Both the position numbers and the translations under genes were made by a program. A DNA stretch of 64,000 nucleotides from positions 372,001 to 436,000 of the forward strand of contig NZ_CP042828.1 in NCBI RefSeq assembly GCF_008000995.1. The letters run 5' to 3'. Below are positions 11,490-16,650 of the stretch, piece by piece (the first letter of the stretch is position 1; each line of letters begins with the position of its first letter). The notes under the pieces were generated by a model. The model was not told the DNA's origin. It saw only the letters and a list, made by a program, of their open reading frames with translations, and made no database searches. The stretch is from Ruania zhangjianzhongii (GTDB taxonomy: Bacteria; Actinomycetota; Actinomycetes; Actinomycetales; Beutenbergiaceae).

Positions 11490-12353
11490 TCAGTCTTCCT
11501 CGAGCTCCTCACCGGCCGGTTCGACGGCGGAGCGTGCGATGGTCTCGGAGCCCTCGCCCAGGTCCTCCTCCTCGGCGGGCTGGAGCTCGGCGCTCGGGGT
11601 GCGCTGCGCGGCGGGGTCGGGGGTGCGCTGCGCGGCGGGGTCGGGGGTGCGCTGCGCCGGGCTCGGTGCCGTGGCCGTGGCCGGGTTGGCCGGGTTGGCC
11701 GGGTTGGCCGTGCTCGCGGCGGTGCCGGTGGTGCCGTGCGGGGCTGGCTGGGACATCACCGTGTGGGCGTTGCGCTCGGCCTCCTGCTCGAACCGGTCGG
11801 ACGGATCGGAGACTTTGATTCCGCCCCCGACCTCGGTGCCGGCCACCGGGCCGCTGCGCTGCTGCACCACATGGGTGAGCTCGTGCGCCAGCACGGTCCG
11901 ACCATGCTCGGAGTCCGGGCTATAACCGCTGGACCCGAACACGATGTCCTCGCCGACGGTGTAGGCATGGGCCTGCACCGACTTGGCCGACTCGCTCGCG
12001 GCTCCGCCGGTGTGCACCCGAACGTCGGAGAAGTCCTGACCCATCCGTGCCTCCATCTCCGTGCGCACCGGCTCGGCCAGCGGGCTGCCGGTGGAGGAAC
12101 CGAGCAGATCGAGCACGGGGGAGCGTTGCGGCTGGTCACCGGTGATCAACTCCTCAGTGGCGGCATTGCCGGCGGTGCGCTGCAGGTCGAGCAGCCCGTC
12201 AGCGCCCAGCACGTCCGCGCGTCGGTCGGTGATTCCCGCGCTCACCGGTCCGGTGGCGGGGCGCTGATGAGGATGCCCGCCGAGGCTCGGCTGCCGGGTG
12301 GGCTGCGACTGTTGGTCGCGGCGCTCGGGATGGTCGTGGTGGGTTGACTGCAT
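11490..12353 (-). CDS. DUF4157 (eCIS core domain) protein
   Basis: The start is set at [13 protein letters not shown] (12353), with GGGAG nine bases upstream; a 36-residue open extension lacks such a site. The product has 287 residues. A disordered N-terminus precedes the DUF4157 domain (about 88-180): [20 protein letters not shown], then [19 protein letters not shown] and [16 protein letters not shown], with the zincin-like HELTH at residues 157-161. The tail is low complexity with an AQRTPDPA repeat and a very acidic C-terminus. DUF4157 proteins are strongly linked to eCIS loci and may be cargo or loading factors; proteolytic activity is unproven. No signal peptide was seen. Confidence 0.88.
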
Positions 12354-12504
12354 AGTGGCTCCCGACTGGTCGGACCCGCCGCCGGGGCGGGCAGTCCTTG
12401 GGTCAGAGTGGCACCTGCCGGGCGGGCCGAGCCCCTGCCGTGGGTACGCCCTTCGGGCCACGCCCGTTGCCCGATCGGGCGGACTCGGCGGCTGCCGCCC
12501 TGCT

Positions 12505-12567
12505 CCGCGACTGGACTCAATCCGTTGCCCAGGTTCGACGTGGGCAACGGATTGTGGCCAGTCAGCG
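12505..12567. repeat. Hairpin-containing direct repeat, copy 1
   Basis: A perfect 14-bp stem, CAATCCGTTGCCCA (12518-12531) with its complement (12541-12554), encloses the loop GGTTCGACG. Flanking bases CCGCGACTGGAC on the left and GTGGCCAGTC on the right are shared with copy 2. The copy sits between the start of the DUF4157 gene and the stop of the DUF559 gene. There is no T-run, but it could work as a terminator; the direct-repeat arrangement also suits a cassette boundary. Confidence 0.85.
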
Positions 12568-12592
12568 GGTGGGGTGGACGGCTATGAGTGGG

Positions 12593-13507
12593 TCAACCTC
12601 GCCAGCCGCGGGAGCGGAGAGCCCGACCAAGGTGCTCGTTGATCACGTTCCGCCGGTTCGGCCAGTGGTACTTGCTGATCCGGAGGTGGATCCAGTCCTC
12701 GTCGTGCAGCTCCTGCTGCCGGGTCAGATCTCGACCGAATTGGACTGGGTCGGTGCGGTGCTGGTCGCCGTCATACTCCACGAGCACCTTGTACTCGAAG
12801 TACACCAAGTCTCCGAACCCGATGAGCTGCGCCTGGGAGTCGAAGATCTTAGGGTTCACCTGAGGTTCCGGGTAGCCCGCGTCCACGATCTCAAGGCGGA
12901 GTTCGGTCTCGCGCGGCGAGTCGGTGCCGGCACGAACGTCACGAAGCGCCGCTTGCACCTTGCGTTGCCCTCGCTGGCCCCGGTTGCCTTGGACGCGGCG
13001 GCGAAGTGTGTCCATCGTGCTGATCGGATACTGCCGGCGGACGAGGCTGTCACCTAGGATGATCAACTCTCGGACGCTGAGGTCCGCGGCGAGTTGGAGC
13101 CACGTACTCACGGGATCGATCGCGCGCAGTCCGCCTGCGATGCAGAGGAATGAGTCCCCCAGCAGCGTGACTTGGTGACCGATGATGCCTGCACCGCGCG
13201 GTGCGCGTCCGGGTGCGAGCACCGCCACGTGCAGATCGTTGCCCTCCAGCCGTCGCGGGAGGGTCAGCCGATGGATGCGAGCGGCGGTGCCATGGCAGTA
13301 GAACTGGTCCGCGTCCATCCGTACCTGCCGAGCGTCGCACAGGTCGAGAAAGGTCGGTTCGGTGCCGGCCGGCGTGCGCACGCCGGGAAAGGGCGAGTCC
13401 AGGTCGGAGGCACGAAGTCGTTGCTCTGTGACTCCGGCCGCCTGTGCGTCCTGCACGCTGAACGGCCTACCGCGCAGGCGATAGGGAAGCGGACCAGGTG
13501 CAGCCAT
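12593..13507 (-). CDS. DUF559-domain endonuclease-like protein
   Basis: A 304-residue protein of a common actinobacterial type. The N-terminal part (RGRPFSVQDAQAAGVTEQRL) looks like an AbiEi-type winged-helix segment. The C-terminal part is a DUF559/Vsr-like nuclease fold: ETELRLEIVDAGYPEPQVNP, then DLVYFEYKVLVEYDGDQHRT with the E-x-D-G-x-x-H core, and IHLRISKYHWPNRRNVI. Substrates of this family are unknown; DNA cleavage is inferred from the fold. No Shine-Dalgarno sequence precedes the ATG. It interrupts the eCIS cluster and is bracketed by near-identical hairpin repeats, with 25 bp on one side and 64 bp on the other, so it may be a later insertion. Confidence 0.85.
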   Translation of the reverse strand: MAAPGPLPYRLRGRPFSVQDAQAAGVTEQRLRASDLDSPFPGVRTPAGTEPTFLDLCDARQVRMDADQFYCHGTAARIHRLTLPRRLEGNDLHVAVLAPGRAPRGAGIIGHQVTLLGDSFLCIAGGLRAIDPVSTWLQLAADLSVRELIILGDSLVRRQYPISTMDTLRRRVQGNRGQRGQRKVQAALRDVRAGTDSPRETELRLEIVDAGYPEPQVNPKIFDSQAQLIGFGDLVYFEYKVLVEYDGDQHRTDPVQFGRDLTRQQELHDEDWIHLRISKYHWPNRRNVINEHLGRALRSRGWRG

Positions 13508-13571
13508 GTGTGCCAGTGTCGCGGTTCGGGCGACGACTCGGATCGTTCCTGTGGACAGCTGCTCACGGCGC

Positions 13572-13634
13572 CCGCGACTGGACGAGATCCGTTGCCCAGG
13601 TTCGACTTGGGCAACGGATTGTGGCCACTCGGCG
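13572..13634. repeat. Hairpin-containing direct repeat, copy 2
   Basis: A perfect 12-bp stem, ATCCGTTGCCCA (13587-13598) with its complement (13608-13619), encloses the loop GGTTCGACT. It matches copy 1 over about 63 bp in the same orientation with roughly six differences, starting 1067 bp away. It lies between the DUF559 start and the ATPase stop, so the pair frames the DUF559 gene exactly. Confidence 0.85.
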
Positions 13635-13696
13635 AACGAGGGGGCGCGGGCGCCCAGGGGTGGGGCTGGGGCGGGTCGGTGAGGGTGGGGAGAGAG

Positions 13697-15937
13697 TTAC
13701 GCCTGGAGCAGGGGCCAGTAGTCGCCGAACTCCTCGGCCAGGGTCAGCCGCCCGAGTTTGCGGTACTCCCGCTGCACGGCGGTGACCAGGTGCCGCATCT
13801 GAAGCGGGCCACCGTCCTCGGCGGCGAAGTAGGCCGCGCTGACCGCCGCCGCCCGGATCGCGCCGCCGCTGAGCGTGAACGAGCGTGCGCAGAAGTCCAG
13901 GTCCAGGTCCTCGGCACGCGGCAGTACCGATCCCAGGCACCGGTCCCAGAGCAGTCGGCGGTGCGCCACGTCCGGCAGCGGGAAGTCCACCACCACGTCC
14001 AGGCGCCGGGTGAATGCGTCGTCGATGTTCGCCCGCAGGTTGGTGGCCAGCAGCACTAGCCCGTCGAAGGATTCCAGCCGCTGCAGCAGATAGGCACTCT
14101 CGATGTTCGCGTACCGGTCGTGGGCGTCCTTGACCTCCGACCGCTTGCCGAAGATCGAGTCCGCCTCGTCGAAGAGCAGCACCGCGTTCACTCCCTGCGC
14201 TGCGGTGAAGATCTGCTCCAGGTTCTTCTCCGTCTCCCCGATGTACTTGTCCACCACCGTGGCCAGGTCCACCACGTACAGGTCCAGGCCCAGATCGGTG
14301 GCGAGGACCTCCGCCGACATCGTCTTCCCGGTTCCGGAATCCCCGGCCAGCAGCGCTGCGACCCCATGCCCGCGGCCGCCGCCGGGCCGCATCCGCCAGT
14401 CGCCGAGCACCCGTTCCCGGTGCCGAGCGCGCAGCGCGATCTCGGCCAGCCCGGTGATGATCGGCTTCGGCAGCACCAGGTCCGGCCAGCCGACCGCCGG
14501 GCTGATCCGCCGCGCCAGCCGCTCCAGGGCGGTGCCATTCTCCGCGCGGGCACCGGCGCGCAGGTGCTCGGCGCCGACCTGCCCGACTCCGTCAGCAGCT
14601 GCCTGTGCCCGCGCGGTGCGCGCTGCCCGGTACACCTGCTCCGGCCGCAGCCGGAACTGCGACGTCACGCCCTCCGTCCCACCCCGGCCCTCCGTCCCAC
14701 CCCGGCCCTCCGTCCCACCCCGGCCGTCCGCCCCGCTCAAGCCATCGCCCGCTCCGAGACTGTCACCCCCGCTCGGGCCATTGCCCGCCCCCAGCGCGGC
14801 AGCCCAGAGCGCCTCCCGCTCGGCCACAGTCGACGCCGGCACGCCCAGCCGCAGCGGGATCCGCCGACTCCACTGCGGATCCCAGGTCTCGGTGCCGACC
14901 AGGACCACCGGCAGGTCCGGCCCGAGCAGATCGATCAGCCCCGGCTCGGCGAGCAGCCCGTGCACCGGACCCAGCACCAGCCCCGCCCCGGCGAGCCGCG
15001 CCTCCCGCACCAGCAGCTCCAGCACCGTCCGCAGCTGCACCGGATCCACCCTGCCCGGCTGGGCCGGATCCACCCTGCCCGGCTGCGCCGGATCGACCCC
15101 GCCCGGCAGCACCGCGTTCACCACATCCCGCCCGTGCTCGCCCAGCGCCCGCGCCGCCAACAGCCGCGCCGAGGAGGTCGCCTCCTCGCGCAGGTACACC
15201 AGAGACTCACCCGCGCGCAGCGCCCGCACCAGCGGCGACGGGTCACCCCAGGCGATCGACGGCAGCTCCTCGATCAGGTGCGCCACCTGTGGGTGTGGAG
15301 TGTCGTCGCCGAGCAGGTGAGCCACCACCCGGTCCGGCACCTGCAGGGACCGCGAGGCCAGCGGACGGTCGGTATCGGTCAGCTCCACCAACCCGGCGGC
15401 CACCAGCGGCCCGCGGGTGATCCGCGCCCGGTCCACCCCCGACGCCAGAGACAGCCCGCACAGCTCGAACGCCGCAGCGGCACCGGGCCGGCGGCGGGTG
15501 ACGTCGTCGTTCAGGTAGCCCAGCAGGGCCTCGAACCGCGGGTCCAGCTCCGGCGCCAGCGCCGTGACCAGGAGGTCCAGGTCCACCTCGTCCACCCCGC
15601 AGCTCGCGCGCAGCGCCGCCAGCCGGGACCCTTCTCGCGCCACCAGCCCGAGCGAACCGGCAGCCACCACGCCGCGCGCTCCGGAGAGCAGATGGTCCAC
15701 CTGCTCCTCGCTCACGTACAGACCGCGGTAGGGGTCGTCCGGCTGGGGGTCCACGGCCCGTCGCCGGGCCACCAGGTCCCGGATCCGGCTCTCGACGGCG
15801 GACAGCCGGTCGAGCAGGTCGCTCACCTTGGTCTCGGTGCGCCCACCCGGGCCCATCCCAGTCTCACCGCTGCCACTTGCCGCTCGGCCATCCCCGGTCT
15901 CCCGACCAGCCGCCGTCCTCCGGCCGACCACGCTCAT
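13697..15937 (-). CDS. eCIS AAA+ ATPase (Afp15 type)
   Basis: A 746-residue protein starting MSVVGRRTAAG at 15937 through an ATGA overlap with the cap gene; the frame is open far upstream but that part lies inside the cap gene. Residues 1-500 form an N-terminal region with a winged-helix-like and degenerate ATPase portion. The C-terminal AAA+ domain has Walker A GDSGTGKT (Lys538), Walker B LLFDEADS (Asp590-Glu591), a sensor LLATNLRANIDDAFTRR and the arginine-finger region. Family members are needed for particle assembly, probably remodelling tail components, and act in the cytoplasm. Short Gly/Asp repeats (GRGGTEGRGGTEG) sit near residue 415. Confidence 0.93.
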   Translation of the reverse strand: MSVVGRRTAAGRETGDGRAASGSGETGMGPGGRTETKVSDLLDRLSAVESRIRDLVARRRAVDPQPDDPYRGLYVSEEQVDHLLSGARGVVAAGSLGLVAREGSRLAALRASCGVDEVDLDLLVTALAPELDPRFEALLGYLNDDVTRRRPGAAAAFELCGLSLASGVDRARITRGPLVAAGLVELTDTDRPLASRSLQVPDRVVAHLLGDDTPHPQVAHLIEELPSIAWGDPSPLVRALRAGESLVYLREEATSSARLLAARALGEHGRDVVNAVLPGGVDPAQPGRVDPAQPGRVDPVQLRTVLELLVREARLAGAGLVLGPVHGLLAEPGLIDLLGPDLPVVLVGTETWDPQWSRRIPLRLGVPASTVAEREALWAAALGAGNGPSGGDSLGAGDGLSGADGRGGTEGRGGTEGRGGTEGVTSQFRLRPEQVYRAARTARAQAAADGVGQVGAEHLRAGARAENGTALERLARRISPAVGWPDLVLPKPIITGLAEIALRARHRERVLGDWRMRPGGGRGHGVAALLAGDSGTGKTMSAEVLATDLGLDLYVVDLATVVDKYIGETEKNLEQIFTAAQGVNAVLLFDEADSIFGKRSEVKDAHDRYANIESAYLLQRLESFDGLVLLATNLRANIDDAFTRRLDVVVDFPLPDVAHRRLLWDRCLGSVLPRAEDLDLDFCARSFTLSGGAIRAAAVSAAYFAAEDGGPLQMRHLVTAVQREYRKLGRLTLAEEFGDYWPLLQA

Positions 15938-16650
15938 GTCGACCTCGGCGCACGAGCTCGCCCGCGCGCCCGCGCCTTGCCACCTCCGGACCCCGGTGAG
16001 GCGGACTCCGCCACCCGGGCTGCGCCGTCGCCGGCAGGAGGAGGCGGCCGGTGCACAGTGCGCCGTGGATCGGTGGAACCGGTGGTGGTGGCCTCGGTGA
16101 TCACCCCGAGGCCGTCGGCCGCCAGCGGTCCCACCGCGCGCGTCTCGGCCACCAGCGGGGCGGTGATCACCAGGTCGACCGACGGTTTCAGCTGCCCACC
16201 CAGCGAGGACCAGACGTCGGCAAAGCCGCGATCCTCCGGCGGCGGCAGCCCCACGGTCATCAGCGGCTGCGGTCGGGCAGCGGCGAGCGTGCCGCCCAGC
16301 CGGTCCGTGGGCAGCGCCTGGTACCGGCCGAGGGTGAGCAGCAGCGTGTCCAGCAGCCGGTGCTCGTCCTCCGGACGCTGCGTCCACGCCGTCACCAGGT
16401 AGGAGAGCTTGAACAGTCGGGGCGGTGGCTGCCGGCCGGTCACCTGACCGTCATGAGTCTTCGCGAACAGTCCGCGTTCGCGCCAGCGCAGGTCCTCCCG
16501 GATGTCGTACAGATACAGGTTCACTGTGGGGGCGTTGCGCCGGGCCGCCCAGTCGGTGGTCGGGGCCTCGAACACCACCTCGACGTCCGACCCGGCCAAG
16601 GCCTCCTCGGCCACGATCGTGCGCAGCAGGTCGTCGATCTCCGGGATCAC
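15934..16650 (-). CDS. Pvc16-type tail cap protein (DUF4255)
   Basis: A 238-residue protein with the Pvc16 N-terminal domain: MIPEIDDLLRTIVAEEAL, then APTVNLYLYDIREDLRWRER, LFKLSYLVTAWTQRPEDEHR and LLDTLLLTLGRY. In the Afp and PVC particles this family caps the distal end of the tube and sheath. The C-terminal 55 residues are a disordered Pro/Arg/Gly tail (PPPPAGDGAARVAESASP, then KARARGRARAP). The ATG at 16650 sits one base past the stop of the propeller gene, and its stop overlaps the ATPase start, so all three are one transcript. Confidence 0.93.
   Translation of the reverse strand: MIPEIDDLLRTIVAEEALAGSDVEVVFEAPTTDWAARRNAPTVNLYLYDIREDLRWRERGLFAKTHDGQVTGRQPPPRLFKLSYLVTAWTQRPEDEHRLLDTLLLTLGRYQALPTDRLGGTLAAARPQPLMTVGLPPPEDRGFADVWSSLGGQLKPSVDLVITAPLVAETRAVGPLAADGLGVITEATTTGSTDPRRTVHRPPPPAGDGAARVAESASPGSGGGKARARGRARAPRST

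What the first reader, a model, noticed from the sequence alone, without database searches (positions are those of the whole stretch)
12505..13634. DUF559 gene framed by two near-identical hairpin repeats inside the eCIS cluster
Two 63-bp direct repeats, 1067 bp apart, each with a 12-14 bp perfect stem and a 9-nt loop, enclose exactly one endonuclease-like gene between the ATPase and DUF4157 genes. This looks like a mobile cassette with palindromic ends, or a gene that carries its own terminators when duplicated. No transposase is present.
Basis: seen in the sequence. Interest (0 to 1): 0.72.

Follow-up and report, generated by a model that had tools for sequence, protein, structure and literature searches.

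The report
Nuclease gene flanked by mobile palindromes
A DNA-cutting-enzyme gene in an actinobacterium sits between two copies of a 60-letter palindrome that is also scattered around the genome, and related bacteria carry related enzyme genes that are mostly framed by private palindromes of their own, which suggests a previously unrecognised type of selfish or domesticated mobile DNA.

Summary
Two 63-bp repeats (90% identical), long imperfect palindromes, frame one gene; its homologs have an AbiEi-like N-terminal part and a DUF559/MTES_1575 nuclease C-terminus. But it belongs to the nuclease. Of 121 full-length homologs (window excluded) 89 have a strong repeat shared by their two flanks, against 0 of 77 neighbouring ORFs. 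Genes in one genome have different palindromes (own pairs 29 of 43, cross pairs 1 of 64). Two other palindromes searched in 19 genomes are dispersed (14 and 23 places) and occur only in their own genus. At shared addresses the palindrome-gene-palindrome unit occurs in both orientations, as diverged alleles, or not at all; 9 related eCIS clusters lack it. This works like REPIN/RAYT systems, but no HUH transposase domain is present. Best reading: a nuclease with its own dispersed palindromic substrate. That the nuclease spreads the palindromes is inferred, not shown. No structure could be predicted.

The parts
12505..12567 (-). downstream palindrome (copy 1), imperfect, ~26-nt arms, 9-nt loop
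   Evidence: family found at 14 genomic sites
12593..13507 (-). nuclease gene, 304 aa: N-terminal part that is AbiEi-like in homologs, C-terminal DUF559/MTES_1575 domain (match at residues 238-295)
   Evidence: AbiEi models hit 13 of 22 aligned members, at residues ~9-190 in the 8 of 10 single members that matched; this protein itself has no AbiEi match
13572..13634 (-). upstream palindrome (copy 2), 90% identical direct repeat of copy 1
12505..13634 (-). whole unit palindrome-nuclease-palindrome (~1.13 kb) between eCIS ATPase and DUF4157 genes
   Evidence: the 9 related clusters seen with both neighbours lack it
13697..16387 (-). neighbour: AAA ATPase of the eCIS cluster (not part of the element)
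11490..12461 (-). neighbour: eCIS_core (DUF4157) gene (not part of the element)

Best explanation
The unit is a nuclease-palindrome element that works like a REPtron. A two-domain protein (AbiEi-like, probably DNA-binding N-terminal part plus DUF559/MTES_1575 nuclease, a Vsr-like PD-(D/E)XK type) is encoded between two copies of its own ~60-bp palindrome. Inferred mechanism: the N-terminal part recognises the gene-specific interior of the palindrome; the nuclease cuts at or near it, perhaps at the recurrent outer CGA...TCG and perhaps when it is extruded as a hairpin; repair or recombination then copies palindromes to new intergenic sites, flips the unit between its two ends and occasionally swaps the allele. 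Shown: palindrome-gene-palindrome anatomy, gene-specific palindromes, genus-restricted dispersed copies, inverted, diverged and empty alleles. Inferred: recognition, cleavage and dispersal by this protein.
For: Flank-repeat test (best 5'/3' flank score at least 20): 38 of 61 loci, window included, against 0 of 40 neighbouring ORFs and 0 of 610 shuffles; 40 of 74 in named genomes, against 0 of 36 ORFs; with the CDS end included, 89 of 121 full-length homologs, against 0 of 77 ORFs, and 3 of 3 plasmid-borne homologs looked at. Specificity within a genome: own pairs 29 of 43, cross pairs 1 of 64; five genes with five palindromes in G028. Dispersal and genus restriction: 14 host sites; 14 in G027 and 7 in its congener, 0 in 17 other genomes; 23 places in G046 and 2 weak in its congener, 0 in 17 others. 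Common form: 133 hairpins at 88 of 142 loci, median length 58, interquartile range 54-62; CGA/TCG near the outer ends in 52 of 133 against a mean of 5.7 (largest 13) in 200 shuffles. Paired changes between copies. Inverted unit at shared addresses. Absent from the address in G000 and G005 and from 9 of 9 eCIS clusters with both neighbours. One dispersed host copy is missing at the syntenic place in 5 of 5 congeners where the place was found (host palindrome scores 25 in the host, 6-7.5 in them). Profile matches to solved structures over the C-terminal domain: 3hrl E 4e-4, 3r3p 'mobile intron protein' E 0.08.
Against: No transposition, excision or cleavage was observed. No target-site duplication was identified, and the junctions of the dispersed copy are blurred by divergence. 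32 of 121 full-length homologs score under 20 in the flank test, 28 of them under 17, although some of those have clear hairpins, e.g. L053 on both sides. Short homologs mostly lack repeats (2 of 12 under 285 aa). 15 of the 77 homologs outside the window, mostly the weakest, were not fetched. 3 of 77 control ORFs reach 17. Few plasmid (8 of 72,556, query L170) and phage records (1 of 50,697, query the window protein) match, so there is little sign of horizontal spread. Loci of one genus are not independent. Outside the genus the host's model gave only weak hits, some of them not palindromic. In the G027/G045 copies the number of pairs with two-sided change does not exceed shuffles. A RAYT elsewhere in these genomes was not searched for.
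Confidence: 0.68

Rival explanations
1. The palindromes are bidirectional transcription terminators. The gene carries its own, and copies arise by ordinary recombination because intergenic 3' ends tolerate them.
For: Strong hairpins. Of 37 classifiable dispersed copies 18 lie between convergent genes, 17 between tandem and 2 between divergent genes, i.e. mostly at 3' ends.
Against: Terminators need no gene-specific sequence, yet own pairs match and cross pairs in the same genome do not (29 of 43 against 1 of 64). One copy lies upstream of the gene's start. No T run: the terminator scan finds 0 sites in 12300-13900. Copies keep the same primary sequence over up to 23 places. Neighbouring ORFs show nothing alike (0 of 77).
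Confidence: 0.15
2. The palindromes are operators of an AbiEi-like regulator, and the dispersed copies mark its regulon.
For: N-terminal similarity of many members to AbiEi models (13 of 22). AbiEi antitoxins bind inverted repeats upstream of their own operon (recalled, from no call).
Against: A copy also lies at the 3' end of the gene, often overlapping the stop codon. Classed dispersed copies avoid divergent promoter regions (18 convergent against 2 divergent; binomial p 2e-4). ~60-bp palindromes are longer than an operator needs.
Confidence: 0.08
3. The palindromes are REPs/REPINs of an unrelated enzyme (e.g. a RAYT elsewhere), and the nuclease gene is a passenger caught between two copies.
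For: REP-like size and intergenic placement. No search for a RAYT in these genomes was made.
Against: A passenger would not carry a different private palindrome for each paralog in one genome, nor be the gene found between such repeats in 89 of 121 homologs.
Confidence: 0.06

Closest known systems
REPIN/REP sequences with their RAYT (REPtron)
   Same: Gene flanked on both sides by palindromic repeats; the same palindromes dispersed in intergenic DNA; abundance tied to the cognate gene; orthologous genes with different flanking palindromes ('orthoswitch'); terminal signature with variable stem (passages of PMC3686654; outline, abstract and passages of PMC3116915; single-copy, vertically inherited genes: passage of PMC8049555).
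   Different: Enzyme matches DUF559/MTES_1575 nuclease models with an AbiEi-like N-terminal part, and no Y1 transposase model. Recurrent end signature is CGA...TCG (52 of 133), not GTAG. 7-23 places instead of hundreds. The unit is found inverted at shared addresses.
Vsr-like (EDxHD) homing endonucleases (family name recalled)
   Same: Nuclease domain related by profile to 3r3p, annotated 'Mobile intron protein' (E 0.08), and 3hrl (E 4e-4). Empty and occupied addresses.
   Different: No intron or intein was seen around it; flanked by its own palindromes; multi-copy palindromes without the gene; one phage record of 50,697.
AbiE (type IV) toxin-antitoxin
   Same: AbiEi-like N-terminal similarity in many members.
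   Different: C-terminus is a nuclease domain; the 1.13-kb element has no room for an AbiEii partner; palindromes at both ends.
MITE-type dispersed palindromes (Correia, ERIC; recalled)
   Same: Short, intergenic, palindromic, non-coding copies.
   Different: Here a candidate autonomous partner is identified and carries the same palindrome at both ends.

Membership tests
REPIN/RAYT (REPtron) | gene flanked on both sides by palindromic repeats | tested here: met
   repeat shared by both flanks in 89 of 121 full-length homologs, 0 of 77 control ORFs; hairpins at 88 of 142 loci
REPIN/RAYT (REPtron) | same palindromes dispersed in intergenic DNA of the genome | tested here: met
   14 host sites; 14 and 7; 23 places; 7 of 44 copies looked at overlapped an ORF call or lay at a contig end
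REPIN/RAYT (REPtron) | enzyme is a Y1 HUH tyrosine transposase | tested here: not met
   no Y1_Tnp among the 11 Pfam families matched by 22 members at E up to 1; instead MTES_1575 in 20 and DUF559 in 16
REPIN/RAYT (REPtron) | conserved GTAG/GTGG-type tetranucleotide next to the palindrome | tested here: inconclusive
   no dedicated search for the tetranucleotide; the recurrent end motif seen is CGA...TCG, 52 of 133 hairpins
REPIN/RAYT (REPtron) | enzyme cuts and moves the cognate repeat | not testable with these tools
   needs biochemistry
DUF559/MTES_1575 nucleases (Vsr-like, PD-(D/E)XK type; the type is recalled) | sequence profile match | tested here: met
   window protein below the curated cut-offs (26.4 of 38.2 bits; 16.1 of 20.6); 20 and 16 of 22 members match at E up to 1; the NCBIfam vsr model matches 1 of 22 at E 0.07
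DUF559/MTES_1575 nucleases (Vsr-like, PD-(D/E)XK type; the type is recalled) | conserved acidic/His motifs | tested here: met
   E200, G247, H250 and D260 invariant, D233 and E244 nearly so, in 22 sequences; two loose motifs in 135 of 142 proteins
DUF559/MTES_1575 nucleases (Vsr-like, PD-(D/E)XK type; the type is recalled) | fold | not tested
   structure prediction machine busy at every attempt
AbiE toxin-antitoxin | AbiEi antitoxin plus AbiEii nucleotidyltransferase pair | tested here: not met
   the gene fills the space between the palindromes and the next genes are eCIS genes; the window protein itself hits no PADLOC model at E up to 0.1. No separate AbiEii search was made
Intrinsic terminators | hairpin followed by a T run | tested here: not met
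   0 terminator-like sites in 12300-13900 (the scan allows loops of 3-8 only); no T run next to either copy

The most novel reading that the evidence does not exclude
A Vsr-like PD-(D/E)XK nuclease is, on its own, the mobilising enzyme of a hitherto undescribed class of palindromic mobile DNA in actinomycetes. It recognises a private palindrome through a fast-evolving DNA-binding domain, cuts constant CGA/TCG ends, copies the palindrome to new sites and inverts its own gene cassette: a second, independent invention of the REPIN/RAYT way of life.
Probability: 0.5. Interest if true: 0.93.

Novelty: new variant of a known kind. Interest (0 to 1): 0.84.

Why it matters
REP-like palindromes with a known partner have, as far as I know, been explained by one enzyme class, the HUH RAYTs. 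A non-homologous nuclease with the same genomic life-style would show that short palindromes plus a domesticated nuclease are a recurrent way of persisting in bacterial genomes. It would suggest a function for a widespread, so far nameless family (DUF559/MTES_1575 with AbiEi-like N-terminal part), explain dispersed intergenic hairpins in these actinomycetes, and supply many natural nuclease-palindrome pairs from which DNA recognition rules could be read. All of it is testable in vitro.

Tried and rejected
Repeats tied only to this gene: rejected, 12 other host sites. Paralogs in the host: none by protein search; the MTES_1575 model finds two more, distant, domains in much larger open frames, at none of the 14 palindrome sites. 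Plasmid or phage carriage: few records; the three Arthrobacter plasmid loci fetched do have the flank repeat (3 of 3). Association with the eCIS itself: rejected, 0 of 13 related stretches hold the gene, 9 of them with both neighbours in view. Clean junctions of dispersed copies from the L206/L221 pair: flanks too diverged. Genus-wide search of G027 for empty sites: only 2 genomes held. Literature: among them all 14 papers of the library that hold 'DUF559' (listing with abstract starts only); none of the listings links it to palindromes; subscription papers and most preprints are not in that library. A first motif count with too strict a pattern (79 of 142) was replaced by a looser one (135 of 142). 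My notebook gives 5 tandem host copies and 38 classified in all; re-reading one search gives 4 and 37, which this report uses.

Full report
Observation. The window holds two 63-nt direct repeats at 12505-12567 and 13572-13634, 90% identical, 1067 apart. Each is one long imperfect palindrome: inner perfect stems of 14 and 12 bp with 9-nt loops, and outer arms that extend the pairing to 26-27 nt. Folding is far stronger than in shuffles. They enclose a minus-strand gene, 12593-13507, 304 aa. Its C-terminal part matches MTES_1575 (26.4 bits, cut-off 38.2) and DUF559 (16.1 bits, cut-off 20.6), both below the curated cut-offs. Neighbours are an AAA ATPase and an eCIS_core gene.

Host. The window is C2:372001-436000 of a 5.1-Mb genome. 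A genome that the tool places in the same genus (G007, locus L053) is 100% identical over 2635 bases to a record named Candidatus Ruania gallistercoris (L125; Ruaniaceae, Micrococcales), so the host is probably a Ruania; this is inference.

Dispersed copies. A BLAST of the 63-mer and then a covariance model built from ten copies find the palindrome at 14 host sites at E below 1e-5, the two flanking ones included (four of the 14 were not in the model). No other copy of this gene is in the host by protein search; the MTES_1575 model finds two more distant domains in much larger open frames, at none of these sites. Ten proteins next to six of the 12 other sites were scanned: nine match ordinary families (pyruvate dehydrogenase E1, CtaG, FtsK/SpoIIIE, transglutaminase, LacI, TetR, AsnC and the like), one none.

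Link with the nuclease. In a search of 58 relatives plus the host, the model hit 10 of 59 genomes at E up to 0.1. The relatives' hits are differing sequences, mostly palindromes, and at least two are not. In 4 of the 9 relatives hit (G001, G002, G034, G054) a hit lay beside a homolog of the same gene, which had not been selected for. I therefore looked at the homologs themselves. One search lists 77 homologs outside the window; 62 were fetched and analysed, 15, mostly the weakest, were not. With the window that makes 63 loci, of which 61 had usable flanks (L050 and L077 dropped): the best local alignment between the 350-bp 5' and 3' flanks, direct or inverted, scored at least 20 in 38 of 61, against 0 of 40 neighbouring ORFs and 0 of 610 dinucleotide shuffles. 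A second set of 80 named loci (best 80 of 576) gave 40 of 74, against 0 of 36 ORFs (dropped for short flanks: L141, L145, L150, L158, L179, L187; L125 repeats L053). Because the 3' palindrome often overlaps the stop codon, the last 90 nt of the gene were then added: 41 of 61 and 51 of 74. Pooled, without the window and L125, this is 89 of 121 full-length homologs (285 aa or more), 2 of 12 shorter ones, and 0 of 77 control ORFs, of which 3 reach 17. Three Arthrobacter plasmid loci also pass (3 of 3). Loci of one genus are not independent, so these are counts, not probabilities.

Each gene has its own palindrome. In genomes with two or more homologs, a gene's own 5'/3' pair scores at least 20 in 29 of 43 cases, while 5' of one gene against 3' of another in the same genome does so in 1 of 64. 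G028 has five genes with five unrelated palindromes. Across lineages the interiors differ but the form is constant: 133 hairpins at 88 of 142 loci, median 58 bp (interquartile range 54-62), commonly ~50-160 bp upstream of the start and from ~50 bp before to ~60 bp after the stop, with CGA near the left and TCG near the right outer end in 52 of 133, against a mean of 5.7 and a largest value of 13 in 200 shuffles of the ends.

Dispersal in other lineages. The palindrome of the G027 gene occurs at 14 places in G027 and 7 in its congener G045, and in none of 17 other genomes. That of the G046 gene occurs at 23 places in G046, some partial and several near contig ends, weakly at 2 places in its congener G028, and in none of 17 others. 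Copies keep pairing through paired changes. In the G046/G028 set (18 sequences; the partial copy L233 left out) 9 pairs have two-sided changes and the covariation score is 0.163, against at most 0.083 for slid versions. In the G027/G045 set (19 sequences; L208 and one flanking copy left out) it is 0.139 against at most 0.071, although there the number of pairs with two-sided change (7) does not exceed shuffles (7.0). Of 44 dispersed copies looked at (12 host, 12 G027, 5 G045, 15 G046; 6 further G046 places not fetched and the 2 of G028, both tandem, not counted), 37 could be classed: 18 between convergent, 17 between tandem and 2 between divergent genes; 7 overlapped an ORF call or lay at a contig end (genes called by a simple GC3 rule). 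This argues against operators and leaves a terminator side-function open, though no T-run terminator is found around the host pair.

Mobility and inversion. At one address in the host's genus (between a TetR gene and a class-V aminotransferase gene) the unit is present in G001, G002, G003 and G007 in one orientation and in G004 and G006 in the other. G003 and G006 share flank blocks of 89-94% identity but carry inverted alleles only 61% identical at DNA level. The host (G000) and G005 have an alcohol dehydrogenase or a transporter gene there and no hairpin inside the interval. Promicromonospora MEB111 (L198) is inverted relative to P. kroppenstedtii (L175) and P. iranensis (L195, L199). Against L199 the flank homology stops 20 and 6 bp outside the palindromes of L199 and 0 and 43 bp outside those of L198; against L175 it stops 4 and 41 bp outside on one side and runs through the palindromes on the other. 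G027 and G045 are likewise inverted, with homology on the left running through the palindrome. Of 13 relatives' eCIS stretches none holds the nuclease gene; 9 show both ATPase and DUF4157 genes (4 close, 5 distant), 4 show no DUF4157 gene in the stretch. The four close clusters also have no hairpin of the kind. One dispersed host copy (C2:1327937) is missing at the syntenic place in 5 of 5 congeners where that place was found (6 fetched); the spacer is shorter in three and filled with other sequence in two, and the host palindrome consensus scores 25 in the host and 6-7.5 in them. The exact junction is not readable.

Protein. In 22 aligned homologs E200, G247, H250 and D260 are invariant and D233 and E244 nearly so; two loose motifs are present in 135 of 142 proteins. 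Profile search of solved structures gives an endonuclease-like protein (3hrl, E 4e-4) and a mobile intron protein (3r3p, E 0.08) over the C-terminal domain; calling these Vsr-like and PD-(D/E)XK is recalled knowledge. PADLOC AbiEi models match 13 of 22 members; in ten members scanned singly, eight match, at residues ~9-190, i.e. N-terminally. The window protein itself has no such match. Structure prediction was never available.

Mechanism. The pattern is that of REP/RAYT systems as described in PMC3686654 (passages), PMC3116915 (outline, abstract and passages) and PMC8049555 (passages): repeats flank the gene, abundance depends on the cognate gene, orthologous genes can have different repeats, and the genes are single-copy and vertically inherited. 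It is not a member, since no Y1 HUH domain is found. I infer that this nuclease recognises and cuts its palindrome and that repair spreads or flips it. Shown: anatomy, specificity of pairing, dispersal, inversion, absence alleles. Not shown: binding, cleavage, transposition, target duplication.

Verdict.

Noticed in passing
L067, L073, L074, L078 (second homolog in G002, G006, G003, G001): A second orthologous nuclease at another address has longer inverted flanks (about 70-143 bp) with a recurring GGGCCGAATAATTGACCC-like motif, possibly two fused palindromes.
   Followed up: partly
L206:2850-3060 (G027): A dispersed palindrome lies just downstream of what reads like a tRNA-type 3' end (GGTTCGATTCCCGCC...CCA, perhaps tmRNA; recalled, not checked with the tRNA tool).
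   Followed up: no
G046 contigs C29, C37, C43, C62 and the end of C11: Several palindrome copies lie within about 100 bp of contig ends, as if assemblies break at them.
   Followed up: no
window 14669-14740: Four head-to-tail 18-bp units, the last diverged (GCCCTCCGTCCCACCCCG), inside the AAA ATPase gene.
   Followed up: no
window 11608-11713: 24-bp and 9-bp tandem repeats inside the DUF4157 gene.
   Followed up: no
L058 (G013): Nuclease gene with ~187-bp direct repeats on both sides, each of which appears to hold two palindrome-like units in tandem.
   Followed up: no
L280 (G000:C2:1341200-1346600) and L281 (G005): The address that holds the cassette in six congeners holds an alcohol dehydrogenase or an MFS gene in these two: a variable locus.
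   Followed up: partly
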